Assembly (NCBI GenBank): GCA_016214145.1
Contig: JACRPA010000002.1
Coordinates: forward strand, 434,001 to 498,000
Reading direction: 5' to 3'
Source: Rhodocyclales bacterium
GTDB taxonomy: Bacteria; Pseudomonadota; Gammaproteobacteria; Burkholderiales; Rhodocyclaceae
Length of the DNA stretch: 64,000 bases
This document shows, piece after piece, positions 20,128-31,212 of the stretch. Numbering within the stretch: position 1 is the stretch's first letter; each line of letters opens with the position of its first letter. The notes under the pieces were generated by a model. It was not told the DNA's origin. It saw only the letters and a list, made by a program, of their open reading frames with translations, and did no database searches. The position numbers and the translations under genes were made by a program.

Positions 20128-20562
20128 ATGAGCGACATCCCAGAGGGCTTCAAGGCCATCGAGCACACCGGGCCCTTCCTCAGCCAGAACGGCCCGCTCT
20201 ACTGCAAGAAGGCGGACGGCAAGCTTGTCCTCGGCCTGCGCATCGACGAGCGCCACACCAATATGCGCGGCATCGTGCACGGCGGCATGCTGGTCACCAT
20301 CGCCGACAGCGCGCTGGGCACCGTGCTCTACAACTCGCGCAAGCCGCCGCAGCCGATGGTGACGGTGAGCCTGACCACCGACTTCATCGAGAGCGCCTAC
20401 CCGGGCGACTGGGTCGAGGCCCACGTCGACGTCCTGCGCATCGGCAAGCGTCTCGCCTATGCCAACTGCTACCTGCACGTCGGCGAGCGCCGCATCCTGC
20501 GCGCCAGCGCCGTCTTCGCCGTGGTGCCGGAAATCAAACCGAAAGAGGAATCCGAAGGATGA
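20128..20562 (+). CDS. PaaI-family hotdog thioesterase
   Basis: A 144-residue hotdog protein. The catalytic helix region reads MRGIVHGGMLVTIADSALGT, followed by MVTVSLTTDFIESAYPGDWV. The start is the ATG seven bases after the enoyl-CoA hydratase stop. Its stop overlaps the next start by 4 bp (ATGA). It hydrolyses a CoA thioester; it is a second PaaI-type enzyme besides that at 7772, so the two probably act on different intermediates. Confidence 0.88.
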   Translation: MSDIPEGFKAIEHTGPFLSQNGPLYCKKADGKLVLGLRIDERHTNMRGIVHGGMLVTIADSALGTVLYNSRKPPQPMVTVSLTTDFIESAYPGDWVEAHVDVLRIGKRLAYANCYLHVGERRILRASAVFAVVPEIKPKEESEG

Positions 20563-21017
20563 GCAAAAAGTATTATTGGGAGGATTTTCCCGTAGGCAGC
20601 GTCACCGAGTACGGCGGCGTCACGCTGACGAAGGAGGACATCATCCGCTTCGCGAAGGAGTTCGATCCGCAGCCCTTCCACATCGACGAGGAAGCGGCCA
20701 AGCACTCCCAGTTCGGCGGGCTGGTCGCCAGCGGCTGGCACACCTGCAGCCTGTGCATGCGCATGATGTGCGACGCCTACCTGCTCGAATCGGCCAACCT
20801 CGCCTCGCCCGGCGTAGAAAATATCCGCTGGCTGAAGCCGGTGCGCCCCGGCGACACCCTGCACGTGCGCAGCGTCGTGCTGGAGGCGCGCCCCCTGGAA
20901 AGCAAGCCGCACATCGGCCTGATGCGCAACCGCTGGGAAGTGCTCAACCAGAACGGAGAGGAAGTCATGCAGATGGAAGGCTACGGCATGATGCACCGGC
21001 GCAGCCATCGGGATTGA
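20559..21017 (+). CDS. MaoC-like (R)-specific enoyl-CoA hydratase
   Basis: A 152-residue MaoC/hydratase-2 hotdog protein. It begins SKKYYWEDFPVGSVTEYGG and has the hydratase-2 motif: catalytic Asp and His in EFDPQPFHIDEEAA, then FGGLVASGWHT. It overlaps the thioesterase by 4 bp. It adds water to a 2-enoyl-CoA to give the (R)-3-hydroxy product. A second MaoC gene at 22980 suggests hydration of more than one intermediate. Confidence 0.9.
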   Translation: MSKKYYWEDFPVGSVTEYGGVTLTKEDIIRFAKEFDPQPFHIDEEAAKHSQFGGLVASGWHTCSLCMRMMCDAYLLESANLASPGVENIRWLKPVRPGDTLHVRSVVLEARPLESKPHIGLMRNRWEVLNQNGEEVMQMEGYGMMHRRSHRD

Positions 21018-21031
21018 TCCATGCAAGCTCC

Positions 21032-21114
21032 GGTAGGTCGGGCTTCAGCCCGACGACCAAAGGAAGTCCCTGTGGGACAACGAGCGCGATTGTCGGCCTG
21101 AAGGCCGACCTACG
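21032..21114. repeat. TGTAGGTCGG-type repeat with inner TCCCTGTGGGACA module
   Basis: Outer arms GGTAGGTCGGGCTTCAGCCC and GTCGGCCTGAAGGCCGACCT enclose CCAAAGGAAGTCCCTGTGGG, the reverse of the inner module at 10264. Confidence 0.87.
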
Positions 21115-21123
21115 ACAGCCAAA

Positions 21124-21840
21124 ATGAAAATTCACGTCCTTTTGAAAAAGGAAGAACTCGACGCCCAGCGCCTGCCGGGCAAGACGGTGATCGTGCTCGA
21201 CATCCTCTTCGCCACCTCCAGCATCGTCGCGGCGATGGCGCACGGCGCGACCGAGGTCGTCCCGACGCTCGACGGCGCGGCGGCGCAGGCCGAGGCGGCG
21301 CGCCATCCGGCTGACACCTGCGTGCTCTCCGGCGAACTGAACGCCGACACCCTGCCCGGCTTCGTGCACCCGACGCCGCTGGCCCTGCTGGCGGAAAACC
21401 TCGCCGGCAAGACGCTGGTCTACTCCACCACCAACGGCACGGTGGCGGTCGCCAAGTCGCGCGAGGCCGACCACGTCTACGCCGCCGCGCTGCTCAACGG
21501 CGAGGCGGTCGTCGCGCACATCGGGCGGCATCATGCCGACGAGACGGTGCTGATCGTCTGTTCCGGCTCGGCCGACAACTTCAACCTCGAGGATTTCTAC
21601 GGCGCCGGCTACCTGGTCTCGCTGTTCGCGCGCCACGGGCAGGAGCACGAATTCACCGACGCCGCCCTCGCCGCCATGATGCTGCACGAGAAGTGCGAGG
21701 CCGGCGAATGCCTGCGCCGCGCCCGCGTCGGCCGCATGATGCTCGAACGCCGCCTCGACCGCGAGGTCGACTTCGCCGCGCAGAAGAGCCTCTACGACGT
21801 CGTGCCGAAGCTCGACGGCAAGCGCCTGGTAGCGGCATGA
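21124..21840 (+). CDS. 2-phosphosulfolactate phosphatase (ComB) family protein
   Basis: A 238-residue ComB-like protein. Diagnostic segments are VIVLDILFATSSIVAAMAHG near residue 20, CVLSGELNAD near 62, VYSTTNGTVAV near 100 and CSGSADNFNLEDFYGAGYLV near 142. ComB dephosphorylates 2-phosphosulfolactate in coenzyme M and sulfolactate routes; many bacterial relatives have no known substrate. The GE and ED residues that bind Mg2+ in the family appear kept. No ComA or ComC homologue lies nearby, so the role in an acyl-CoA cluster is open. Confidence 0.82.
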   Translation: MKIHVLLKKEELDAQRLPGKTVIVLDILFATSSIVAAMAHGATEVVPTLDGAAAQAEAARHPADTCVLSGELNADTLPGFVHPTPLALLAENLAGKTLVYSTTNGTVAVAKSREADHVYAAALLNGEAVVAHIGRHHADETVLIVCSGSADNFNLEDFYGAGYLVSLFARHGQEHEFTDAALAAMMLHEKCEAGECLRRARVGRMMLERRLDREVDFAAQKSLYDVVPKLDGKRLVAA

Positions 21841-21847
21841 ATCTGCC

Positions 21848-21931
21848 CTTCGATACGCCTGCTACGCAGGCTACTCAGGGCGAACGGAAAATTCCGTTCG
21901 TGGTGAGTAGGTGCGCAGCACCGTATCGAAC
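21848..21931. repeat. TTCGATACG palindromic repeat
   Basis: Outer arms TTCGATACG and CGTATCGAA enclose inner inverted pairs (GCCTGCTACGCAGGC; CGAACGGAAAATTCCGTTCG). A multi-stem palindromic element seen once in the window. Confidence 0.78.
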
Positions 21932-21961
21932 CATGAACGGCGCTCAACCTGGGAACGCGAT

Positions 21962-22849
21962 ATGAACTTGCAGCACCACTACGTCGATTCCGACGACGTC
22001 CGCCTGCACTACGTCGAAGCCGGCGACGGCCCGCTCATCCTCTTCGTGCATGGCTTCCCGGAGTTCTGGTACGCCTGGCAGAACCAGCTGGAGGAATTCT
22101 CGCGCGACCACCATGCCGTGGCGCTCGACATGCGCGGCCACAATCTTTCCGACAAGCCGACCGACGTCAAGGCCTACCGGCCGAAGCATCTCGTCGCCGA
22201 CCTGCGCCGGCTCATCGACCACCTCGGCAGCCGCCCCTGCATCGTGGTGGCCCACGACTGGGGCGGCGCGGCGGCGTGGAACCTGGCGGCGGCGCATCCT
22301 GAATACATCGAGAAGCTGGTCATCATCAACTCGCCGCATCCGGTCACCTTCGCCCGCGAACTGCGCGACAGCCCGGCGCAGATCGAGGCCAGCGCCTACA
22401 TGAACTGGTTGCGCCGCCCCGGCGCGGCGGAGAAGCTGGCCGGGAACGACTGCGCGCGGCTCGCCGCCATGCTGTCGAAATCGACGACCGACGCCGCCTG
22501 GCTCACGGAGGAACTGCTCGCGCGTTACCGCGAAGCCTGGCTGCAGCCGGGCGCGCTCGACGCCAGTCTGAACTTCTACCGCGCTTCGCCGCTGCATCCC
22601 GCCACGCCGGAGGAACCCGGCGCTGCAGGCCTCGACCTCAAGCCGGAGGATTTCACCGTCCGCGTGCCGACGCTGGTGATCTGGGGCGAGCACGACACGG
22701 CGCTCCTGCCCGGCCTGCTCGACGGCATCGAGGCGATGGTGCCGAAGCTCACCGTAAGGCGCATCCCCGACGGCTCGCACTGGGTCATCCACGAGCGGCC
22801 CGCTGAAGTGAACCGTCTCATCCGCGAATTCATCGACAATGCCCCCTGA
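21962..22849 (+). CDS. Alpha/beta hydrolase, epoxide-hydrolase-like
   Basis: A 295-residue alpha/beta hydrolase. The oxyanion motif is HGFPEFWYAW near residue 30. The nucleophile elbow reads VVAHDWGGAAAW near residue 98 with Asp, as in epoxide hydrolases and haloalkane dehalogenases, not Ser. The catalytic acid is probably in WGEHDTALLPG and the His in DGSHWVIHERP. HGFP plus HDWGG favours an epoxide hydrolase. It may open an epoxide in the pathway or detoxify one; a dehalogenase is a less likely alternative. Confidence 0.85.
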   Translation: MNLQHHYVDSDDVRLHYVEAGDGPLILFVHGFPEFWYAWQNQLEEFSRDHHAVALDMRGHNLSDKPTDVKAYRPKHLVADLRRLIDHLGSRPCIVVAHDWGGAAAWNLAAAHPEYIEKLVIINSPHPVTFARELRDSPAQIEASAYMNWLRRPGAAEKLAGNDCARLAAMLSKSTTDAAWLTEELLARYREAWLQPGALDASLNFYRASPLHPATPEEPGAAGLDLKPEDFTVRVPTLVIWGEHDTALLPGLLDGIEAMVPKLTVRRIPDGSHWVIHERPAEVNRLIREFIDNAP

Positions 22850-22873
22850 GCCAATGCCCTCCCACCCACCCTA

Positions 22874-22918
22874 CCCCCTTTGTCCCACGGGGATTTCCTT
22901 CGGTCACAAAAGGGGGTG
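22874..22918. repeat. CCCCCTTTGTCCC-type repeat, short form
   Basis: ACCCCCTTTGTCCCACGGGG is followed by ATTTCCTTCGGTCACAAAAG and GGGG. It forms a stem between the C and G runs. Same family as 17316 and 52349. Confidence 0.85.
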
Positions 22919-22979
22919 GCCCGAAGGGCCGGGGGATTTCGCAGCGGCTACGCCGCACCCACGCTGCCGGTAACCGAAA

Positions 22980-23441
22980 ATGCCCAAAATCACCATCAAG
23001 AATCTCGACGAACTCAAACACTGGGTCGGCAAGGAAGTCGCCGTCAGCGACTGGCTGCCGGTCGACCAGGATCGCATCGACCGCTTCGCCGACGCCACCG
23101 GCGACCACCAGTGGATCCACGTCGACCCGGCGCGCGCGCAAGCCGAATCGCCCTTCGGCTCAACGATAGCCCACGGCTACCTGACGCTCTCGCTGCTCCC
23201 GCACATGATGATGGAGACGCTCGCCATCGAAGGCGGCCGCATGAGCATCAACTACGGCCTCAACCGCGTGCGCTTCTCCGCCCCGGTGCGCTGCAACGAC
23301 CGCATCCGCACCCGCTTCACCCTGGCCGAACTGGAAGACATCCCCGGTGGCATCCAGGTCACCTGGCACGCCCTCGTCGAGATCGAGGGCCAGCACAAAC
23401 CCGCCTGCGTCGCCGAGATGATCGCGCGGCGCTACGTCTAG
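22980..23441 (+). CDS. MaoC-family hydratase (NodN-like)
   Basis: A 153-residue hotdog hydratase. The catalytic pair is within ADATGDHQWIHVDPARA, followed by FGSTIAHGYLTLSL, the NodN/MaoC pattern. It is the last gene of the rightward operon. A nearly identical copy of its last ~54 bp is found out of frame at 31172-31224, beyond the ynb-like operon. It probably gives (R)-3-hydroxyacyl-CoA. Confidence 0.9.
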   Translation: MPKITIKNLDELKHWVGKEVAVSDWLPVDQDRIDRFADATGDHQWIHVDPARAQAESPFGSTIAHGYLTLSLLPHMMMETLAIEGGRMSINYGLNRVRFSAPVRCNDRIRTRFTLAELEDIPGGIQVTWHALVEIEGQHKPACVAEMIARRYV

Positions 23442-23451
23442 CCTCATAAAT

Positions 23452-23491
23452 AGTCAGTCCCTGCAGCACGGCGTACTGCAGGGACTGGCTT
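23452..23491. repeat. AGTCAGTCCC palindromic repeat (full copy)
   Basis: AGTCAGTCCCTGCAGCACGG and CGTACTGCAGGGACTGGCTT form a near-perfect 40-bp palindrome between two convergent genes, where it may act as a bidirectional terminator. Other copies lie at 33713, 38172, 44688, 44891 and 58681. Confidence 0.88.
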
Positions 23492-23516: not shown

Positions 23517-23963
23517 TCAGGTTTTGGCATCTGGCGCAGGTTCTTGCTCATGCGCCATATCTTCCTCCTTGAACAGGGCCAGGTCACGAACGTTTTTCTG
23601 CACCGCCACAGCCGCATACAGGCTCATCAGGTAGGCAATGGCATAGAAGCCCTTCTCGCTCTGGGTAAATGAGGCGTTCCACAGCCCGATCACCAGCAGC
23701 GTGATGGAGGCGCCGACGGCTATCCAGGCCAGACTGAAATACAACCCGGTCACAGGAACGCCTTCCAGACGATCGCGGACCGCCTTCTGAAGCGATACGG
23801 ATGAAAACAGGCCCAATATCAGGACAGTGAAGTAGTAGCCCTTTTCATTCAGTTGCATTTCGGCATTCCAAAGCCCGGTAATGAACCCGAGCGTTCCTAC
23901 CATCAAGGCTATCCACGATGCACCGACAAATGCTCCAGTTGGTTTCTGCATTGTTGGCTTCAT
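23517..23963 (-). CDS. yiaA: YiaA/YiaB family inner-membrane protein
   Basis: A 148-residue membrane protein made of two similar halves, each with two membrane segments and the repeated motif GLWNAxxxxxEKGxY (GLWNAEMQLNEKGYYF near residue 30, GLWNASFTQSEKGFYA near 95). This is the YiaAB two-helix domain, whose function is unknown. The start has AGGGAGG upstream. The C-terminal tail is short and acidic. It is convergent with the maoC operon and co-directional with the ynb-like operon. Confidence 0.87.
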   Translation of the reverse strand: MKPTMQKPTGAFVGASWIALMVGTLGFITGLWNAEMQLNEKGYYFTVLILGLFSSVSLQKAVRDRLEGVPVTGLYFSLAWIAVGASITLLVIGLWNASFTQSEKGFYAIAYLMSLYAAVAVQKNVRDLALFKEEDMAHEQEPAPDAKT

Positions 23964-24088
23964 TCCACCCTCCCTTTTTAGTACGTTGTAGAAATTTGAA
24001 ACTTCATGTTTTTCTTCAGTATTTCAATTATGCGCCCGTTGTACGTCAATGCACAATTCATTTGTTGGCGAATGCCTGTCCAGCACCT

Positions 24089-25033
24089 TCATGGCTCCCA
24101 CCAGTAGCGAACGATGTGAAAGAAAATCGGGGCCGAAAAGCTGATGGAGTCCACGCGGTCAAGCATGCCGCCATGGCCTTCGATCATGGCGCCCCAGTCC
24201 TTTACGCCGCGATCACGCTTGATTGCCGAAAGCACAAACCCGCCGAAGAACCCGAAGATATTGATGCAGAGGGCGATGAGCGCCGCTTGCCAGGGCGCAA
24301 AAGGCGTCAGTTGCCAGAGCGCGGCCCCCACCGCCGTAGACGTCACGACACCGCCGATCAACCCTTCGACCGTCTTGGATGGCGATATGGTCACCGATAT
24401 CTTGTGCTTGCCGAGCAGCTTGCCCCAGACATATTGAAAGACATCGCTGGACTGGACGGTCAGGACAAGAAATACAACCAGCAACAGGACACGGTCCCCG
24501 TAGCCTGGAATATCCAGGGTCAGCAGGGCGGGCACATGCGACAGGCAGTAAACGCAGATCATCAGCCCCCACTGCACCTTCGCGGCTCGTTCCAGGAAGC
24601 GTGTCGTGTCGCTGCCGAGCGCTTCCCAAATGGGCAGCAGAAGGAACGCGTAGACCGGAATCAGTATCGAGAACAGCCCATACCAGTCGATGGCAATGAG
24701 GGCATACTGCAGCGGCAGGAAAACGAAAAAGCTCCAGACCAGCGCCTGGTGATCCCCTCGTCGGGTATGGGTCAATGAAACGAATTCACGCAGGCACTGG
24801 AAGGAAATGAAGGAGAACAGGACAATCATCCCCCACTTGCCGAGCCAGAGCGCCCCGCCGAGAAGCACGATCATCCACCACCAGGCCTTGATGCGCGTAT
24901 TCAGATTGTCGATCGTCGCGGAGGAATACCCGGCGGGCAGTCGAAGCCTGAGATACAGTCCGATGCTGCTGGCGACGACAAGAACGGCGAAGACCGCGCC
25001 GAGCGTAAGCAGCAAGGTTTCCTTGACCGTCAT
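24089..25033 (-). CDS. ynbB: Phosphatidate cytidylyltransferase (CdsA/YnbB-like)
   Basis: A 314-residue polytopic membrane enzyme that makes CDP-diacylglycerol from phosphatidate and CTP. The family signature is complete near the C terminus: SAIKRDRGVKDWGAMI followed by GHGGMLDRVDS. The ATG at 25033 overlaps the end of plsC and has GAGGAG upstream; a longer frame continues into plsC out of register and is not real. It is the last gene of the ynb-like operon, unlike E. coli, where ynbB follows ynbA. A housekeeping cdsA probably exists elsewhere. Confidence 0.9.
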   Translation of the reverse strand: MTVKETLLLTLGAVFAVLVVASSIGLYLRLRLPAGYSSATIDNLNTRIKAWWWMIVLLGGALWLGKWGMIVLFSFISFQCLREFVSLTHTRRGDHQALVWSFFVFLPLQYALIAIDWYGLFSILIPVYAFLLLPIWEALGSDTTRFLERAAKVQWGLMICVYCLSHVPALLTLDIPGYGDRVLLLVVFLVLTVQSSDVFQYVWGKLLGKHKISVTISPSKTVEGLIGGVVTSTAVGAALWQLTPFAPWQAALIALCINIFGFFGGFVLSAIKRDRGVKDWGAMIEGHGGMLDRVDSISFSAPIFFHIVRYWWEP

Positions 25034-25038
25034 GGAAA

Positions 25039-25665
25039 TCACTCCTCTGCCGGGGAAAGCGCAGACAACGCTTCCCTGGCGCGGTTGAGGAAAGCCTGCT
25101 TGTCTTCCCCTGCAGCGATTCGCATGGGAGATCCGAACGTAAGGGTGCAAAGCAGGGGTACGGGGATAACGGCTCCCTTTGGCATGACGCGGCCGACATT
25201 CTCGATCCACACCGGGATGAACTCGACTTCCGGGTTCGCGCAGGCCAGATGGTAAATGCCGCTCTTGAACGGCAGCAGTCCGTCCTCCAGATTTCGGGTC
25301 CCTTCCGGAAAAATGATCAGCGAATCTCCTTGGGAAAGCGCCCCGCTCATCTGCGCTATGGGACTCACCTCCTTGCTTGCCTTGGCGGAGCGATCGATCA
25401 GGACGCTGCGGAATACGCTGACCCCGATATAGCGCGACAAGGGCGTTGCCAGCCAGTAGTCGGCACCGGCGACCGGGCGGGTAATGCGCCGCAACGAAGG
25501 CGGCAGGGAAGCCCAAATGAGGACGAAATCCCCATGGCTGCGATGATTCGCGAAATAGACGCGCTGCCTGCCTTCCGGCTGGCTGCCGCGCCAGATGGCC
25601 CGTACGCCAGTCAATAGCTTCGCAAAACCGCAGATTGCCCCTGCCACCATATTTTCAAAGGCCAT
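25039..25665 (-). CDS. plsC: 1-acyl-sn-glycerol-3-phosphate acyltransferase (PlsC)
   Basis: A 208-residue lysophosphatidate acyltransferase. Motif I is NHRSHGDF (HX4D) near residue 40 and the glycerophosphate-binding motif IIFPEGTRN is near residue 115. One N-terminal membrane-associating segment is present. It makes phosphatidate, the substrate of the CdsA encoded next. E. coli ynbABCD has no plsC, so this operon brings its own acyl-chain step. Confidence 0.9.
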   Translation of the reverse strand: MAFENMVAGAICGFAKLLTGVRAIWRGSQPEGRQRVYFANHRSHGDFVLIWASLPPSLRRITRPVAGADYWLATPLSRYIGVSVFRSVLIDRSAKASKEVSPIAQMSGALSQGDSLIIFPEGTRNLEDGLLPFKSGIYHLACANPEVEFIPVWIENVGRVMPKGAVIPVPLLCTLTFGSPMRIAAGEDKQAFLNRAREALSALSPAEE

Positions 25666-25674
25666 CGGATTCCC

Positions 25675-26139
25675 CTAGCTCAAACCACCCGACAAGGCAG
25701 CGAGTAGCGCTCCCAACTGCGCCGCCATGCAAATGGCCTGCGCGTACAGGAGCCGCATTGCACCTCGGCAGCGGCTTGCCATGTCGCGCGGCAGGCCCTC
25801 GGGTGCCTTGATCAGGCCGCAATCCGCCAACGCGGAATCCAGCGCCGTCAGAGTCTCGCCGTCCTGAACCGACGACTTGCTGAATTCGTGATCCGCCAGT
25901 CTCTTGAACAAGACCGCATCCAGCGCAACCCGCAGGGAAAAGTATTTCTGCGCAATGCCGGCGAGAACTGAAACAAATAGGCAGCCATATCTCCAGGGAG
26001 CCAGGACGCCGGCCGAAATCGCAAGCGTGCCGATCGTCACGAGAAGCAGGGCCAGGCTCCATATGTCGATGCGCCGCCCCAATCCTAGCGACGACGCCGC
26101 CACCCCGGCCAGCATTTCCGCGTTCGAGTTGCTACGCAT
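25675..26139 (-). CDS. Unknown small membrane protein in ynb-like operon
   Basis: A 154-residue protein with no family I recognise. It has two or three hydrophobic segments (about residues 25-45, 48-66 and a C-terminal one ending LLAALSGG). A soluble middle holds one Cys pair region (DCGLIKAP, ASRCRGAM). The ATG at 26139 with GGGAGG upstream overlaps the end of the phosphatase gene by 8 bp. It has no counterpart in the E. coli operon. Its place between the phosphatase and plsC genes suggests a part in the same lipid process. Confidence 0.7.
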   Translation of the reverse strand: MRSNSNAEMLAGVAASSLGLGRRIDIWSLALLLVTIGTLAISAGVLAPWRYGCLFVSVLAGIAQKYFSLRVALDAVLFKRLADHEFSKSSVQDGETLTALDSALADCGLIKAPEGLPRDMASRCRGAMRLLYAQAICMAAQLGALLAALSGGLS

Positions 26140-27484
26140 GGCCTCCCCCTGCATACAAGCCGGCTTGGGAAGCCAACTCGGCAAGCACACGGCGATGCGC
26201 CGGGCCGAATACGATGCCGGAACGACGGGACCGCAGCAGCGACTCGGCCGCCTCCACGGACGGCGTCCTTCCCGTCAGCAACAGCCAGGCTGCGACCGCG
26301 CTGGCGCTGCGCGAATAGCCCAAGGCACAACAGACCAGGACCGGGCCATGATGGCGAGCCTGTTCGATCCGTTGTGCAGCTTCTGCCAGATGTTCCGGCT
26401 CGGGCGCGACAAGGTCCAGCCATGGGATGCAGAAATACTGCCAGTTGCCGGATGGAGCCGGCATTTCCGCGGTCAGGTCCACGAGGCACCGGTAGCCCCC
26501 ATGCTGCATGTCGCGCGATGTCGGCATCCTGCCAAGCCACACGCCGTCAGCGATCATGTCCGGCTGTGGACGCCGGAGCGTCCACAGCCGCGAGTTGATC
26601 CAGGCCCCGACCAGGTAGGGCGCAAGCAGAGCGATGGAAGCCGCGCTATGCCTGCCATGCTCCTTCTGAAAGCCTTTCGCGCCGGGAACGGCGTAGATCA
26701 ACGCCACCAATCCCAATGCGGCGGCCAGCCACAGGAGCCAAAGTCCGCCGCCGCCAAGCCAGATCCCGACCAAGGCCGCCGCAAGGGCGCCGAGGCCATA
26801 GCGAATCGCCAGGTGCCCCCTTTCGGAAACGCGGGCCGGCAGCCAATCCGTCAGGGGCGACCTGCCCGAGTCGGGCCACAGCCAGAGACAAAGAAAACCC
26901 ACCAGGGCTCCTGTCGGGATATCGATGAAATGATGCTGGTAGGTCGTCAGGACGGACAGCGCAATCAAGACGGTCCATGCATGGACCAGCCAGCTGTATG
27001 AACGCGGCGTTCCGGCCGCGAATCGCGCCCAGATGATCACGAGGAGCCCGATATGGAGGGACGGCGCCTGGTTGTAAGGTTTGTCGAACCCCATGAGAGC
27101 ATCGAACATGGCGCCAAAGAATCCACCCACCGCGGGCCGCTCGAAACTGAAGTGCAGCGGGAACAACAGGAAGCAGATCACCGATACGATCTGAACGGTG
27201 AGAAGGCGCAACGCATGGCGATCGACCTGTTGCCTGTCGCGGCACAACAGGAAGGACAGTCCATAGAAAAGGTCGATCGACCAGTAGGGAATGATCGTCC
27301 AGGGGATGAAAGGAATCCCCCGTTCCCACTCGAACAGCAAGGTATCGCTGACCTCGCGCTCGGCCGCCACATGATTGGCAAAGCCGTAGCTGAGAAAGAA
27401 GAACGGGCCGAGGAAAAGCAGCCAGGCGAGGCCGCGCCGCCAGGGAACGGATGCCGTCGCCACGTTGACGCCCGTTGCAGTCAT
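26132..27484 (-). CDS. ynbD: PAP2 membrane domain fused to dual-specificity phosphatase (YnbD-like)
   Basis: A 450-residue fusion. The N-terminal two thirds is polytopic with a PAP2/inositolphosphotransferase-type site: NQAPSLHIG and HHFIDIPTGALVG supply the conserved His residues. The C-terminal ~150 residues are a tyrosine/dual-specificity phosphatase with the P-loop CCALGYSRSA (CX5R-like) and an upstream WLGRMPTSRDM. This is the YnbD architecture. The start overlaps the ynbC-like stop (ATGA). It probably dephosphorylates a phospholipid headgroup intermediate at the membrane. Confidence 0.88.
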   Translation of the reverse strand: MTATGVNVATASVPWRRGLAWLLFLGPFFFLSYGFANHVAAEREVSDTLLFEWERGIPFIPWTIIPYWSIDLFYGLSFLLCRDRQQVDRHALRLLTVQIVSVICFLLFPLHFSFERPAVGGFFGAMFDALMGFDKPYNQAPSLHIGLLVIIWARFAAGTPRSYSWLVHAWTVLIALSVLTTYQHHFIDIPTGALVGFLCLWLWPDSGRSPLTDWLPARVSERGHLAIRYGLGALAAALVGIWLGGGGLWLLWLAAALGLVALIYAVPGAKGFQKEHGRHSAASIALLAPYLVGAWINSRLWTLRRPQPDMIADGVWLGRMPTSRDMQHGGYRCLVDLTAEMPAPSGNWQYFCIPWLDLVAPEPEHLAEAAQRIEQARHHGPVLVCCALGYSRSASAVAAWLLLTGRTPSVEAAESLLRSRRSGIVFGPAHRRVLAELASQAGLYAGGGHA

Positions 27485-29238
27485 GAATGCTTGCGGCGGG
27501 CCAGGGAAACCGTGAATATGCCCCACTCGTCGATGCGCTGATCGAGCTTCTCAAAGCCTGCAGCCTCCACGAGCTGGTCCATCTCGGCCTGCGTGCGCCG
27601 TCGCATGACCCATGCCTGCCCGCCGCGATGGCTGGTCAGCGCCCGGGCAATCAATTCAAGCTGCGGATGCCAGGGTTGCCCCGTATACACGAGGTACCCG
27701 CCGGGCTCGATGACATCGCCCATGCCGGCCAGCGAGCGCGCAACCGGCTCGTTTTCCGGAAACAGTTCGTAGAGGCCGGAAACGATGCCGACCGTAGGAC
27801 GCGGCTGCGCCCCGGCGACGGCGGCCCGGTCGAAGGCGTCGCCCCGCTCGAATCTCGCCACGCCATTGAGGTTGCGCGACTCGATCAGCAGCGAACCGTC
27901 GCGTACGTTGATGTCGCTGTAGTCGCGCAGCACGATGGATTCCGGAGGGATGGGCGCTCGCGTCAGCGCATCCAGGACATAGCGGCCATGACCCGCCGCG
28001 ATATCGAGCACCCGGATGGCGCGGCCGTCAGCGTGCAGCGCCGCCATCGCCTTGAGCAGCAATTCCTCGATATTGACCTTCCTCTGGCGGATGCCACGCC
28101 AGCCGATCGAGTCCAGGTACTGGCGGTCGACCAGGCGGCCCAGGGGGCCAAGGCCGGATGCCGTATTCCGATAGACATAATCGAGCGTGCTGCCGGAATC
28201 GAAGCCGGTCTCGTGGCCCAGCCGAACGCCATCGGACAACAGGCCGCCGAACCGCAATCCAGCCCGGGTCATGGACCAATACAGGCCTCGCGGACTGAGC
28301 GGCGAGAGCGGCTGGGCGAGTGCGCGCGATTCCTCGAAGGTAAATCCCTGCCGGTCGGCCGAAAGAAGATCCGGCCGTTGCGGCGGCCGTTCGAACTGGC
28401 GAAGGATGAACTCCCGCGCCTTGCCGACCGCCTCCGCACGCCCAGCCTCGCCGAGCGTGTCGTGGAAGAAACCGTCCAGGACATGCTTCTCCTTGTCGGT
28501 CGAGCCCAGGCGCCGGAAGAATTCGTGCTGCGGCCCATGGTGGACCACCCAATCGGCACCGGATATGAGCAATTGGGTCGGCAACGTGATGGCCTGCGCG
28601 TCGGCCACGATGCGCTCTGCAGCATCGTAAAGCGCAAGCAGGATATTGACCGAAATGGGCCGTGTGATCAGGGGGTCGGCATCATAGGACGCCTGGCGCC
28701 CGGGATCGTGCGTCAGGAACTTCGACTTGACGTAGCTATTGACGAAGAAATTCCCGCGCAGCTTGTGCATCAGCCGCAGCCCGGGACGGGCGAAGGGCAC
28801 GTATAGCTTGACCTTGAAGGCCGGCGAAGCAAGCACCAGGCAGCGCACCTTGGGCGCGTAATCGTGCGCCCAGGTCGAGACGAGCACGGCGCCGACGCTC
28901 TGGGCGAGGACGGCCATGTCCTCGTGGGCGATGCCGTAGGTGGCGGCGATATGCTCGATGAAGCACTGGATGTCGCGCACCGACGCGCCGAGGCTGGGCG
29001 AATAGCCCCGCTGCCCCGGGGAACGCCCGTGGCCCCGGGCATCCCAGGCGAAGACGTCGAAGCCCGGCAAACCGAGCTCGTCGGCGAGATGGCCCATGCG
29101 TCCGGAATGCTCATGTCCGCGATGGAACATGACGACGCATCGCTTTTGCGCGGCGTCGCCCGGCCAGTGGCGGTAGAACAACTCAACGCCATCGTGAGTC
29201 TTGAACGTTCGTTCATGCACCTTGCGGGTTTCCGTCAC
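27481..29238 (-). CDS. ynbC: Alpha/beta hydrolase fused to methyltransferase (YnbC-like)
   Basis: A 585-residue fusion, the same domain order and very similar length to E. coli YnbC. Residues ~1-300 form a monoglyceride-lipase-like hydrolase: FHRGHEHSGRMGHLADEL, AWDARGHGRS, and the nucleophile in LAQSVGAVLVS (AxSxG, not GxSxG). Residues ~330-580 hold a class I SAM methyltransferase with VLDIAAGHGRYVLDAL. I start at the GTG at 29238, which has AAAGGA upstream; an ORF continues further into ynbA out of register. Hydrolysis and methylation of a lipid headgroup is a fair inference. Confidence 0.85.
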   Translation of the reverse strand: MTETRKVHERTFKTHDGVELFYRHWPGDAAQKRCVVMFHRGHEHSGRMGHLADELGLPGFDVFAWDARGHGRSPGQRGYSPSLGASVRDIQCFIEHIAATYGIAHEDMAVLAQSVGAVLVSTWAHDYAPKVRCLVLASPAFKVKLYVPFARPGLRLMHKLRGNFFVNSYVKSKFLTHDPGRQASYDADPLITRPISVNILLALYDAAERIVADAQAITLPTQLLISGADWVVHHGPQHEFFRRLGSTDKEKHVLDGFFHDTLGEAGRAEAVGKAREFILRQFERPPQRPDLLSADRQGFTFEESRALAQPLSPLSPRGLYWSMTRAGLRFGGLLSDGVRLGHETGFDSGSTLDYVYRNTASGLGPLGRLVDRQYLDSIGWRGIRQRKVNIEELLLKAMAALHADGRAIRVLDIAAGHGRYVLDALTRAPIPPESIVLRDYSDINVRDGSLLIESRNLNGVARFERGDAFDRAAVAGAQPRPTVGIVSGLYELFPENEPVARSLAGMGDVIEPGGYLVYTGQPWHPQLELIARALTSHRGGQAWVMRRRTQAEMDQLVEAAGFEKLDQRIDEWGIFTVSLARRKHS

Positions 29239-29254
29239 AGCATGTCCTTTCGGG

Positions 29255-29866
29255 TTAATGTTGACGGGCCTGTTCCAGCCCGCCCCGGATTCGGTTCCAG
29301 ATGTTCGCCGCGATGGCCGCGGCCATCGCAGGCATGAGCCAGAAGAGCCAGGCCGGCAGTTCCGCCGATGCACCGACCCAGAGGCCGAGCGCGCCGAACA
29401 CCAGGGCGCGGTCGCTCTTGCCCATCGGCCCGTCGTAACGGCGTTCGGCGCCGACGACCTGCCCCAGCACCCCGGCCATTTCCGACAGCGCGGACAGGAA
29501 GACGATCGTCGCGATACCGCCCCAGCCGAACGGCGCGATATTCACGAAGGGCAGGTAAAGTGCCGCGTCGGATACGACATCGGACAGCTCATTGAGATAG
29601 GCGCCGAGCGTCGATTTCTGTCCGAACTCCCGGGCCAGCATGCCGTCAATCGCATTCAGCGCCATGCGCAGCAGCATCCAACCCGGCAGGAGCAGGAAAA
29701 GAAGGCGCCTGTCGGGCTCGAAATACAGGAACAGTCCAAGCGCCATGGACACCAGCATGGCGGCCAAGGTCACCGCATTTGCCGTAATGCCCGAGGAAGC
29801 CAGCCGGCCCACGAGCGGCCGCAGCAAGGCCTGGAAGCGCGGCTTGAGCGTATAGAGGCTTGTCAT
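29255..29866 (-). CDS. ynbA: CDP-alcohol phosphatidyltransferase (YnbA-like)
   Basis: A 203-residue membrane enzyme that transfers a phosphatidyl group from CDP-diacylglycerol to an alcohol. The signature is DGMLAREFGQKSTL followed by GAYLNELSDVVSD. Compared with DGxxARx8GxxxDxxxD, the third Asp is Asn (GAYLN), while the last Asp remains and another follows four residues later. Several hydrophobic helices surround it. First enzyme gene of the operon, after the ArsR regulator. The alcohol acceptor is unknown. Confidence 0.88.
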   Translation of the reverse strand: MTSLYTLKPRFQALLRPLVGRLASSGITANAVTLAAMLVSMALGLFLYFEPDRRLLFLLLPGWMLLRMALNAIDGMLAREFGQKSTLGAYLNELSDVVSDAALYLPFVNIAPFGWGGIATIVFLSALSEMAGVLGQVVGAERRYDGPMGKSDRALVFGALGLWVGASAELPAWLFWLMPAMAAAIAANIWNRIRGGLEQARQH

Positions 29867-29885
29867 GCCAGAGGATCCCGCGAAC

Positions 29886-30197
29886 TCAGGTTGATTTCTC
29901 GATGTAGTCGATTACGTTGCCGAACACGGCAATCAGCCATTGCCGGTCGATCCAGTACCAGACTTCCTTGCCGAGCTTCTCCGACTTCAGCACCCCCGCC
30001 TCACGCAGCACCTTGAGATGGTGAGAGACGGTCGAACGGGTCAAGGTCGACACCTCGGCAATCTGGCCGACATTGAGCCGTTCGCCCGGTTCAAACAGCA
30101 GGAGGATGCGCTGGCGATGCTCGTCGCCCAGCGCGGCAAACACCTTCGACATCGCCCGCCAGCGGGTGGGTATGGCCCGGCTATATCCTTTTTTCAT
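29886..30197 (-). CDS. ArsR-family transcriptional regulator
   Basis: A 103-residue winged-helix repressor. It has the ArsR pattern FAALGDEHRQRILLLF and the recognition helix STLTRSTVSHHLKVLREAGV. It lacks the ELCVCD metal site of classical ArsR; there are no Cys residues, so metal sensing there is unlikely. It precedes the ynb-like operon in the same direction by 19 bp and probably controls it. The ATG at 30197 has no Shine-Dalgarno and lies where transcription from the predicted promoter would begin. An internal ATG (MSKVFAALG) is a possible alternative start. Confidence 0.85.
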   Translation of the reverse strand: MKKGYSRAIPTRWRAMSKVFAALGDEHRQRILLLFEPGERLNVGQIAEVSTLTRSTVSHHLKVLREAGVLKSEKLGKEVWYWIDRQWLIAVFGNVIDYIEKST

Positions 30198-30204
30198 ATC
30201 GATG

Positions 30205-30236
30205 AGTTTAGATATGTCGTATTATATTGTCAATAT
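30205..30236 (-). promoter_or_regulatory. Candidate sigma-70 promoter with overlapping palindrome
   Basis: On the minus strand TTGACA (30233-30228) and TAAACT (30210-30205) are 17 bp apart, which puts initiation near 30198, essentially at the arsR start codon. The -35 hexamer lies inside the perfect palindrome ATATTGACAATAT (30224-30236), a likely operator for autorepression. Confidence 0.55.
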
Positions 30237-30282: not shown

Positions 30283-31212
30283 ATGACAACCTCATTGCCA
30301 CACCAGATCGCCATGACCGCTCCCGCCACCCGCAAAACATGGATACGACGCGCAGCCCTCCTCGCCGCAATCTGCATTGCCCTGGGATATGCGGCCCTGA
30401 CGCTTCTCGTGCATCCAGCCAACGATCGCGACTGGTCTCTGGACCAGGCGCGGACCGCCAAGGCGGACTTCAAAGGCGACACGGTGAGAATCAGCAACAT
30501 CCGCAACACCTTTTACCGATCGACTCACGATTTCGACGTCAGGTGGGAGGAGCGTACCTACGATCTGCGCCGGATCGAGTCCGTCTGGTTCATGGTCGAG
30601 CCGTTCTCCGACTGGCGCGGCCCTGCCCATACGCTTCTCAGCTTCGGCTTCGGCGATGGCGAGTTCCTTGCAATCTCCGTCGAGATCCGGAAGGAAAAGG
30701 GCGAGTCGTATTCGCCCTTGCTGGGACTGCTGCGCCAATATGAACTGACCTACGTCGTCGGCGACGAGCGCGACCTGATCGGCTTGCGCGCGAACCATCG
30801 CCATGACTCGGTGTACCTCTATCCGATACGCACGACGCCGGAAAAAATCCGGGCCATGTTCGTTTCAATGCTGGAGCGTGCCAACAAGCTGGTCGAACAG
30901 CCCGAGTTCTACAACACGCTGACGAGCACCTGCACCACGAACATCGTTCGCCATATCAACGCCATCGCCCCGAGCCGCATTCCCCTGAGCCACAAGGTGC
31001 TGCTTCCCGCCTATGCCGATGAACTGGCCTACGACCTGGGCCTGATCGACACGGAACTGCCGCGCGACCAGTTTCGAAGCGCCCACCTGATCAACGACCT
31101 CGCGTTGATCCACGCGGACAGCACCGCCTTCTCCAAGGGAATCCGTTCCCGCTATCGCATGCCTCAACCCGGATCGACGGTCAGCACAAGCCCGCCTGCG
31201 TCGCCGAGATGA
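30283..31212 (+). CDS. DUF4105 / Lnb N-terminal-domain membrane-anchored protein
   Basis: A 309-residue protein. One N-terminal membrane anchor (about residues 23-43) is followed by a periplasmic domain of the DUF4105 type, also called the Lnb N-terminal domain. Visible hallmarks are RGPAHTLLSFGFGDGEF with a His and EFYNTLTSTCTTNIVRHIN with a Cys, the likely catalytic pair of this cysteine-protease-like fold. In Firmicutes Lnb performs lipoprotein acyl transfer; the job of the Gram-negative single-domain forms is not settled. An ATG at 30313 is an alternative start. The last ~13 residues come from an out-of-frame maoC fragment. Confidence 0.75.
   Translation: MTTSLPHQIAMTAPATRKTWIRRAALLAAICIALGYAALTLLVHPANDRDWSLDQARTAKADFKGDTVRISNIRNTFYRSTHDFDVRWEERTYDLRRIESVWFMVEPFSDWRGPAHTLLSFGFGDGEFLAISVEIRKEKGESYSPLLGLLRQYELTYVVGDERDLIGLRANHRHDSVYLYPIRTTPEKIRAMFVSMLERANKLVEQPEFYNTLTSTCTTNIVRHINAIAPSRIPLSHKVLLPAYADELAYDLGLIDTELPRDQFRSAHLINDLALIHADSTAFSKGIRSRYRMPQPGSTVSTSPPASPR

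What the first reader, a model, noticed from the sequence alone, without database searches (positions are those of the whole stretch)
23517..30236. Expanded ynbABCD-like phospholipid module with plsC, an unknown membrane protein and its own ArsR regulator
Seen: minus-strand order ArsR, CDP-alcohol phosphatidyltransferase, hydrolase-methyltransferase fusion, PAP2-phosphatase fusion, unknown 3-helix protein, PlsC, CdsA, with overlaps of a few bases between most genes. Established: E. coli ynbABCD encodes the same two unusual fusions plus YnbA and YnbB; as I recall it has no plsC or regulator. Inferred: the operon can go from lysophosphatidate to a novel headgroup lipid, then hydrolyse, methylate or dephosphorylate it, under one switch. 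This is the best candidate for an undescribed system here.
Basis: partly seen in the sequence, partly recalled or inferred. Interest (0 to 1): 0.75.

Follow-up and report, generated by a model that had tools for sequence, protein, structure and literature searches.

The report
ArsR-controlled Arc1 membrane-lipid defence operon
This stretch is a known kind of bacterial membrane-lipid operon (called arc1 in Pseudomonas, where it helps cells survive lipid-cutting toxins), here put behind a switch gene that in related bacteria usually sits in front of genes that repair damaged phospholipids, which suggests how such defences are turned on outside Pseudomonas.

Summary
The genes are as described. 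The six-gene core (CDP-alcohol phosphatidyltransferase, hydrolase-methyltransferase, PAP2/DSP, 154-residue protein, PlsC, CdsA) is not undescribed: its content matches P. aeruginosa arc1A-F (PA2541-36, eLife 2022), whose arc1A helps resist T6SS lipase effectors (2025). The order is the same in 71 of 80 related loci. PA2541-36 itself could not be compared letter by letter.

Two things look new. (1) The ArsR is not part of Arc1 (none beside arc1A in 69 loci with over 2 kb upstream). It belongs to a regulator group with Aas and/or LplT lysophospholipid-repair genes downstream in 39 of 40 fetched regions, 12 with Arc3A; the window's genome has a second copy (68%) heading an Arc3A-LplT/acyltransferase run with a similar promoter; L007 joins ArsR-Aas-LplT-Arc1. 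So Arc1 here is probably one arm of an ArsR-switched phospholipase-damage response. (2) Arc1A/YnbA has Asn for the first and third of four signature aspartates in every copy examined, so its chemistry is probably unusual.

The lipid product is unknown. YiaA (23517-23963) is local. Verdict: observation confirmed, 'undescribed system' not supported, novelty in regulator and active site.

The parts
30205..30233 (-). Sigma-70-type promoter (TTGACA, 17 nt, TAAACT), 10 of 12 matches
   Evidence: 2 promoter-like sites found in the region, 2.2 expected, so weak alone; TTGAC present in 42 of 44 ArsR upstream regions vs mean 7.2 after shuffling
30195..30222 (-). Putative ArsR operator: imperfect dyad around the -10 box that runs into the arsR start codon (near-leaderless start)
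   Evidence: TCGATA-N10-TATCGA in 8 of 44 upstream regions; the window copy is degenerate and is not one of them; CTAANNTNNTCGAYATG exactly twice in the genome, before the two arsR paralogues; the pattern was read off these sites, so partly circular
29886..30197 (-). ArsR-family repressor, 103 aa, no cysteine; relatives head Aas/LplT operons
   Evidence: HTH_5 2.3e-11, HTH_metalloreg over cut-off, 0 Cys, neighbourhoods
29255..29866 (-). Arc1A/YnbA: CDP-alcohol phosphatidyltransferase homologue with N-D-N-D instead of D-D-D-D
   Evidence: PF01066 7.7e-9; NDND in window and 79 of 79 loci; AF2 pLDDT 93.0, nearest solved folds are PIP synthases, TM 0.62-0.76
27481..29238 (-). Arc1B/YnbC: monoacylglycerol-lipase-like hydrolase fused to Methyltransf_20; GTG start
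   Evidence: PF12146 1.1e-72, PF12147 3.5e-151; Ser114, Asp229, His259 (triad inferred) and Asp412, Gly416, Gly418 in 80 of 80 loci; best PDB match a monoacylglycerol lipase 8.6e-21
26132..27484 (-). Arc1C/YnbD: PAP2_3 domain plus dual-specificity phosphatase
   Evidence: DSPc 1.7e-12, PAP2_3 6.3e-5 (below its cut-off); Ser142, His144, His184, Asp188 in 80 of 80; Cys386 and Arg392 of CX5R in 78 of 80 with 2 gapped
25675..26139 (-). Arc1D: 154-residue helical membrane protein; Arg70, Asp74, Arg123 in 75 of 75, Asp101 in 74 of 75
   Evidence: no Pfam/NCBIfam/PHROG hit; 75 of 80 loci; residues; AF2 pLDDT 89.8, four helices; no solved fold at E<=0.001
25039..25665 (-). Arc1E: PlsC-type acyltransferase, HX4D and FPEGTR intact
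   Evidence: PF01553 4.7e-17; His41 and Asp46 in 75 of 75, PEGTR in 74 of 75 with 1 gapped
24089..25033 (-). Arc1F: CdsA-type phosphatidate cytidylyltransferase
   Evidence: PF01148 1.2e-66; six of seven signature residues in 76 of 76, Asp295 in 75 of 76; a second CdsA lies at G000:C3:260339-261145
23517..23963 (-). YiaA homologue, possible last gene of the transcript, not a conserved member
   Evidence: NF008482 over cut-off; beside the operon in 1 of 80 loci (L005)
23455..23487 (-). Terminator-like stem (15 pairs) after yiaA
   Evidence: 13 terminator-like sites found, 6.5 expected; T tail weak

Best explanation
An Arc1 operon placed under the ArsR-type repressor of the lysophospholipid-repair (Aas/LplT/Arc3) operons. 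When phospholipids are cut by phospholipases (toxins of rivals or other damage), a signal, perhaps a lysophospholipid or free fatty acid, releases ArsR from an operator over the -10 box, and the operon makes a second, damage-specific lipid line: PlsC re-acylates lysophosphatidate, CdsA makes CDP-diacylglycerol, Arc1A joins it to a (probably phosphorylated) alcohol using an altered metal site, YnbD removes phosphate or passes the headgroup on, YnbC's lipase half clears monoacyl or lyso lipids and its methyltransferase half modifies a product; Arc1D is a membrane accessory. Shown here: gene content, order, conservation, active-site residues, regulator family, similar promoters. Published for P. 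aeruginosa: arc1A helps against T6SS lipases. Inferred: the signal, the repressor action, every lipid product and the order of steps.
For: Six genes in Arc1 order in 71 of 80 loci. Gene content matches the text on PA2536-41: five of six genes phospholipid-related, four like PG-synthesis enzymes. P. aeruginosa lacking arc1A was more sensitive to V. cholerae (less so without active TseL) and to A. baylyi with only Tle1, while a strain lacking tssM1, arc1A, arc3A and aas was no more sensitive than its tssM1 parent to Tae1 or Tse2 (PMC12663445). ArsR relatives: 39 of 40 fetched order-level regions carry Aas and/or LplT genes downstream on the same strand, 37 of 40 with the first module gene within about 200 nt, 12 of 40 also Arc3A. 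The own genome's second ArsR (68%) heads amidohydrolase-like gene - DUF2145 - Arc3A - LplT/acyltransferase. L007 has ArsR - Aas (NF005959, over cut-off) - amidohydrolase - LplT (NF008397, over cut-off) - Arc1A-F on one strand. L006 has an LplT-acyltransferase-like fusion just before arc1A. Four other ArsR-family genes of the own genome have none of these neighbours within 1.5 kb. The two ArsR genes share a promoter-operator sequence with no third exact copy in the genome.
Against: The 2025 authors call the role of arc1A auxiliary to arc3A. In P. aeruginosa, loss of no single B. thailandensis effector relieved the arc1 defect, only one Arc1 gene passed the cut-off against Tle3 and one against the pore-former ColA, and the authors read Arc1 as a broader defence. 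The genome has no VipB-type T6SS of its own, though a target of attack needs none. Clear Aas/LplT genes lie beside Arc1 in 2 of 80 loci, and ArsR precedes Arc1 only in the window and in the species of L007. L199 (41% ArsR) has no repair gene, and L123 and L124 show none within 1.5 kb. Fifteen same-genus genomes have no Arc1A, only matches of 28-31%, so the operon is optional. The operator in the window is a degenerate dyad. Comparison with PA2541-36 by letters was not possible.
Confidence: 0.65

Rival explanations
1. The operon makes a standing unusual headgroup lipid for membrane adaptation; the link to damage in P. aeruginosa is a side effect of altered envelope composition, and the ArsR responds to something unrelated.
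For: A full set from lysophosphatidate to a modified lipid with intact catalytic residues except in Arc1A; E. coli ynbABCD lacks PlsC and Arc1D; Arc1 seems to protect more broadly than against one effector.
Against: Relatives of the regulator sit in front of lysophospholipid repair genes in 39 of 40 regions; arc1A phenotype towards lipases; in P. aeruginosa basal Arc1 expression is very low and induced by Gac/Rsm, and arc mutants were not sensitive to heat, peroxide, salt or detergent.
Confidence: 0.2
2. A back-up route for ordinary phosphatidylglycerol: PlsC, CdsA, PgsA-like Arc1A and PGP-phosphatase-like YnbD simply duplicate housekeeping enzymes to refill damaged membrane.
For: Ting et al. 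note homology of four gene products to PG-synthesis enzymes; another CdsA and canonical CDP-APs are elsewhere in the genome.
Against: Arc1A has N at two of eight signature positions called absolutely conserved; its nearest solved folds are PIP synthases, not PGP synthase (TM 0.62-0.76 vs 0.47-0.51); E. coli YnbD did not complement a PGP-phosphatase-deficient strain; it does not explain the methyltransferase.
Confidence: 0.12
3. Arc1A/YnbA is a non-catalytic or single-metal homologue: it binds CDP-diacylglycerol as a sensor, scaffold or exchange protein for the other five proteins.
For: D1 and D3, which coordinate metal, are Asn in window, 79 of 79 loci, 7 of 7 Arc1A places in relatives and four further E. 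coli or plasmid copies; D4 (catalytic base) is kept.
Against: All other signature residues, the D4 base and the basic residues Lys150 and Arg192 that align with arginines of a PIP synthase (my reading of the alignment) are invariant; the constancy of the two Asn suggests a selected active site rather than decay.
Confidence: 0.2
4. A metal-stress module: the ArsR is a metal sensor and the lipids protect against metal damage.
For: NCBIfam names the regulator 'metalloregulator ArsR/SmtB family'.
Against: The window ArsR has no cysteine; 33 of 42 relatives have none in the matched stretch, 9 have one; neighbours are lipid repair genes.
Confidence: 0.04

Closest known systems
arc1A-F (PA2541-PA2536) of Pseudomonas aeruginosa, antagonism resistance cluster 1 (PMC8926400, PMC12663445)
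   Same: Six genes, five phospholipid-related; the same six in order in the named Pseudomonas loci except L069; that PA2541 is the CDP-AP end is my recall of the PAO1 annotation
   Different: P. aeruginosa cluster is under Gac/Rsm (PA2541 has one known RsmA site); here an ArsR repressor gene sits 19 nt upstream and a YiaA gene may be cotranscribed
E. coli ynbABCD
   Same: YnbA (NDND CDP-AP), YnbB (CdsA), YnbC and YnbD homologues
   Different: No PlsC, no Arc1D, other gene order, no ArsR
Plasmid-borne versions in Citrobacter sp. TSA-1 and an E. coli IncK2/Z-typed plasmid
   Same: CDP-AP, CdsA, PlsC, YnbC; in Citrobacter also YnbD and a 136-aa protein in the place of Arc1D
   Different: Different gene order, beside Tn3 or IS66 elements, no ArsR; in the E. 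coli plasmid only the start of ynbD is detectable; the 136-aa protein has no match to Arc1D at E<=1e-3
Aas/LplT lysophospholipid repair system
   Same: Shares the ArsR regulator family and, in L007 (and by similarity L006), the same gene run
   Different: Re-acylates lysophospholipids directly; Arc1 has its own PlsC, CdsA and CDP-AP
Arc3A (DUF2339) / Arc3B
   Same: Lysophospholipid defence in P. aeruginosa; Arc3A is co-located with the ArsR paralogue in the own genome and with the ArsR in 12 of 40 regions
   Different: Different proteins; Arc1 and Arc3 act independently in P. aeruginosa

Membership tests
Arc1 operon (arc1A-F) | Six genes CDP-AP, hydrolase-MTase, PAP2-DSP, unknown, PlsC, CdsA in this order | tested here: met
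   Window genes; 71 of 80 loci, Pseudomonas species among them
Arc1 operon (arc1A-F) | Sequence orthology to PA2541-PA2536 of PAO1 | tested here: inconclusive
Arc1 operon (arc1A-F) | Control by Gac/Rsm | not tested
   An ArsR gene and promoter are present; no search for GacS/GacA or RsmA sites was made
Arc1 operon (arc1A-F) | Protects against T6SS or lipase attack | not testable with these tools
   Published for P. aeruginosa only
CDP-alcohol phosphotransferase enzymes | Signature D1xxD2GxxAR...GxxxD3xxxD4, eight residues called absolutely conserved (PMC4634129) | tested here: not met
   N-D-N-D in window, 79 of 79 loci and four E. coli/plasmid copies; the three other CDP-APs of the own genome keep DDDD
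CDP-alcohol phosphotransferase enzymes | CDP-AP fold | tested here: met
   AF2 pLDDT 93.0; Foldseek best E 7.4e-5, 4 matches at E<=0.001, all a PIP synthase
E. coli ynbABCD | Only CDP-AP, CdsA, YnbC, YnbD | tested here: not met
   Window adds PlsC and Arc1D; order differs
ArsR/SmtB metal sensors | ArsR-type winged helix | tested here: met
ArsR/SmtB metal sensors | Cysteine metal ligands (recalled; not all ArsR metal sites use Cys) | tested here: not met
   0 Cys in the window protein
ArsR regulators of Aas/LplT operons (grouped here) | Close relatives upstream, same strand, of Aas or LplT genes | tested here: met
   39 of 40 fetched regions of 43 non-self genomes (G629, G886, G803 not fetched); the window copy itself precedes Arc1 instead
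PlsC and CdsA | HX4D / FPEGTR; K-R...D...H...D-R-x-D | tested here: met
   (Asp295 of CdsA is N in 1 of 76)

The most novel reading that the evidence does not exclude
A one-component phospholipase-damage response: a mostly cysteine-less ArsR family senses lysophospholipid or fatty acid and by itself switches on Aas, LplT, Arc3A and, in this lineage, Arc1, doing for bacteria without Gac/Rsm what danger sensing does in Pseudomonas; and Arc1A/YnbA is a distinct CDP-AP class with an Asn-Asp-Asn-Asp metal site making an undescribed repair lipid.
Probability: 0.4. Interest if true: 0.78.

Novelty: new variant of a known kind. Interest (0 to 1): 0.6.

Why it matters
Ting et al. point out that arc clusters are widely conserved but Gac/Rsm is restricted to gamma-proteobacteria, and expect induction by antagonism elsewhere without naming how (PMC8926400 discussion passage). 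The ArsR found here is a concrete candidate with a defined promoter, two candidate target operons in one genome and many relatives on Aas/LplT operons. The Asn-Asp-Asn-Asp signature turns the unknown chemistry of E. coli YnbA and Arc1A into a question that can be tested with one purified enzyme.

Tried and rejected
Undescribed system: rejected after the arc1 papers were found. ArsR as a member of Arc1: rejected; a homologue was detected in 1 of 80 loci (L007), about 4.7 kb upstream and heading Aas-LplT; 10 of the 79 loci with arc1A have under 2 kb upstream, so absence there is not shown. YiaA as a member: 1 of 80. PADLOC defence models: none for the six genes, 14 generic hits for ArsR. PHROGs: none for the 154-residue protein or the Lnb_N protein. 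Solved fold for the 154-residue protein: none at E<=0.001. PAO1 identity by published primers: failed. Papers: ynb genes, PA locus tags, Arc1, ArsR + LplT + lysophospholipid (46 papers hold two of three terms, 15 listed, ranked by number of terms, none with all three), ArsR family/phospholipid/acyltransferase/Aas/regulator (0 papers hold all five). These searches cover only the held open-access library; no paper on Arc1 or YnbA chemistry was seen in them. The operator pattern was read off the two own sites, so its two exact hits are expected; only the lack of a third is information (three more sites at one mismatch; reversed-pattern control 2). Upstream shuffles keep base content, not dinucleotides; the 44 regions include L007 and L187, which are one sequence, and start codons were not curated. 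Twenty-two Pseudomonas loci have an upstream stretch 27-30% like the acyltransferase part of Aas; I did not identify that gene and did not count it as support.


Full report
What is in the sequence. The minus strand from 30197 to 24089 carries seven genes in one direction: ArsR, CDP-alcohol phosphatidyltransferase (CDP-AP), hydrolase-methyltransferase, PAP2_3-DSP, a 154-residue protein, PlsC and CdsA. Junctions are a 19-nt gap, a 16-nt gap, a 4-nt ATGA overlap, an 8-nt overlap, a 9-nt gap and a 5-nt gap. A YiaA gene follows 125 nt after CdsA and ends before a 15-pair terminator-like stem. A sigma-70-type promoter, 10 of 12 matches, lies at 30233-30205 just before arsR; about two such matches are expected in the region by chance, so it counts only together with the conservation below.

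It is a conserved six-gene unit. A scan of one genome for each of 84,980 species with the hydrolase-methyltransferase gave 243 relatives, of which the best 80 loci were returned. The order CDP-AP, YnbC, YnbD, 154-residue, PlsC, CdsA was found in 71 of 80. The other nine: contig ends cut L018, L019, L042 and L047; L034 and L055 have PlsC-CdsA in front; L046 and L054 show no 154-residue gene and no PlsC (L054 begins inside CdsA at the contig end, so its PlsC may be cut off); L069 has YnbC-YnbD-154 only. Among 75 loci with more than 2.2 kb beyond ynbD, 73 have the 154-residue gene, 72 PlsC and 74 CdsA. A homologue of the ArsR was found in one of the 80 (L007, about 4.7 kb upstream) and YiaA beside one (L005); 69 of the 79 loci with arc1A have more than 2 kb upstream of it.

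It is known. Ting et al. (PMC8926400; abstract, sections 5-7 and passages read) named PA2541-36 arc1A-F, antagonism resistance cluster 1: six genes, five phospholipid-related, under Gac/Rsm, needed against B. thailandensis T6SS; they could not tie Arc1 to one effector and call it a broader defence. A 2025 paper (PMC12663445, passages read) finds that arc1A contributes, in an auxiliary way beside arc3A, to resistance against the lipase effectors TseL and Tle1. A third (PMC4066749, one passage) lists PA2541 among RsmA targets. That PA2541 is the CDP-AP end is from my recall of the PAO1 annotation plus the paper's description; I could not compare letters. E. coli ynbABCD, between pdxI and azoR in a record labelled plasmid, has only four of the genes. 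A Citrobacter plasmid has CDP-AP, CdsA, PlsC, YnbC, YnbD and a 136-aa protein beside a Tn3 transposase and recombinase, and an E. coli plasmid has the first four, the start of a ynbD and then an IS66 element: the unit moves. In the window's own genus, 15 sampled genomes (completeness 53-100) had no Arc1A, only matches of 28-31%; six of the 24 other sampled relatives had one at 49-72%.

The regulator is the informative part. The ArsR homologue in L007 is 57% identical and heads a run ArsR, Aas (NCBIfam NF005959 over its cut-off), an amidohydrolase-like gene, LplT (NF008397 over its cut-off), Arc1A-F. L006 has an ORF with weak similarity to LplT and to the acyltransferase part of Aas, in one frame, about 30 nt before arc1A. 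The window's own genome holds a second ArsR, 68% identical, on another contig; downstream of it on the same strand are the same amidohydrolase-like gene, DUF2145, Arc3A (DUF2339, PF10101 1.8e-160) and an MFS-acyltransferase fusion like LplT-Aas. In a class-level sample 6 of 369 genomes, the own one included, had the ArsR at E <= 1e-15; of the five others, G418 has ArsR-Aas-amidohydrolase-LplT, and the four more distant ones (44-50%) have an acyltransferase gene nearby, two of them behind an AMP-ligase, though none of the panel shows within 1.5 kb in G270 and G499. In an order-level sample 44 of 399 genomes, the own one included, had it. I fetched 40 of the 43 others (not G629, G886, G803). In 39 of 40, Aas and/or LplT genes lie downstream on the same strand; in 37 of 40 the first module gene starts within about 200 nt; 12 of 40 also carry Arc3A; one, the genome of L007, carries Arc1. 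L199 (41%) has none. As a control, the four other ArsR-family genes of the own genome have none of the panel genes within 1.5 kb; that control is small. The window ArsR is closer to the ArsR of G785 (85%), which heads an Aas operon with Arc3A, than to its own paralogue, which suggests that an Aas-operon regulator was placed in front of Arc1.

A shared promoter. Regions upstream of 44 ArsR genes (window, 40 regions, L118, L126, L007) show TTGAC in 42 (mean 7.2 after shuffling) and TTGAC followed 16-22 nt later by CTAA in 20 (mean 0.2); a dyad TCGATA-N10-TATCGA around the -10 box is present in 8 and CGAYA-N10-TRTCGA in 10 (mean 0.01), and the second half often contains the start codon. The window copy, CGACATATCTAAACTCATCGATATG, is a degenerate form and is not among the 10. 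A 17-nt pattern read from these sites occurs exactly twice in the 3.42-Mb genome, at the two arsR genes; because the pattern came from them, only the absence of a third exact site is informative. This fits an autoregulated repressor with two operons as targets. The window ArsR has no cysteine, and 33 of 42 relatives have none in the matched stretch, so a thiol-bound metal signal is unlikely.

An altered active site. CDP-APs carry D1xxD2GxxAR...GxxxD3xxxD4, described as eight absolutely conserved residues with D1-D3 binding metal and D4 the base, and a D4-to-N change nearly abolishes activity (PMC4634129 and PMC6506517, passages read). The window Arc1A reads N71-D74-N92-D96. N-D-N-D holds in the window and 79 of 79 loci, in the seven Arc1A places found in relatives and in E. 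coli YnbA, two enterobacterial plasmid copies and one of Burkholderia ambifaria. The three other CDP-APs of the own genome keep all four Asp. The model (pLDDT 93.0) has the CDP-AP fold and is nearest to PIP synthases. Lys150 and Arg192, invariant in 79 of 79, align with arginines of RsPIPS that I take for its phosphate-binding pair, so a phosphorylated acceptor is plausible; but the residue after D4, Arg in inositol-phosphate users, is Val, Leu or Ala. The other enzymes keep their catalytic residues. E. coli YnbD did not replace PGP or C55-PP phosphatases (PMC7413402, passages read). I therefore favour an unusual phosphorylated intermediate over plain PG, without knowing it.

The 154-residue protein. 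Arc1D is found in 75 of 80 loci, has Arg70, Asp74 and Arg123 in all 75, is modelled as a four-helix protein and has no counterpart among solved folds at E<=0.001.

Limits. Function in this organism is inferred from neighbours and from P. aeruginosa. The 80 loci are the closest of 243. Genome samples are unnamed and partial. No claim of regulation or chemistry has been tested at the bench.

Noticed in passing
window 30283-31212 (+): Divergent gene with an Lnb_N periplasmic domain sharing the upstream region with arsR; no homologue of it in the 80 Arc1 loci.
   Followed up: partly
window 23517-23963 (-): YiaA homologue downstream of CdsA, also beside the operon in L005; possibly cotranscribed.
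   Followed up: partly
window 20559-23441 (+): Plus-strand genes next to the operon, one of them MaoC-like (22980-23441) and one that looks like an alpha/beta hydrolase (21911-22849, by eye only).
   Followed up: no
L118 1659-2903, L126 5940-7172, L007 3566-4801: A protein of about 410 aa (Amidohydro_2 match in L007, no Pfam hit in the other two) recurs beside Aas or LplT in many ArsR regions; an unrecognised member of the repair operon, perhaps a lipid or glycerophosphodiester hydrolase.
   Followed up: partly
L118 2863-4113: DUF2145 gene between the ArsR paralogue and Arc3A in the own genome; also in L169.
   Followed up: no
L107, L109: Arc1-like genes on an E. coli IncK2/Z-typed plasmid (ynbD cut short, IS66 beyond) and a Citrobacter IncF plasmid (beside Tn3), gene order different from the chromosomal unit.
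   Followed up: partly
L038-L078, about 500 nt upstream of arc1A in 22 Pseudomonas loci: A stretch 27-30% like the acyltransferase part of Aas lies just upstream of arc1A; gene not identified.
   Followed up: no
L069: Pseudomonas oryzagri record with YnbC-YnbD-Arc1D but no Arc1A, PlsC or CdsA detected in the locus.
   Followed up: no
L184: Aas match comes in two pieces next to ArsR, a broken gene or a sequencing error; left as it is.
   Followed up: no
L046, L054: Accumulibacter and Propionivibrio records where CdsA, a SnoaL-like protein and CDP-AP precede YnbC-YnbD and the 154-residue gene is not found.
   Followed up: partly
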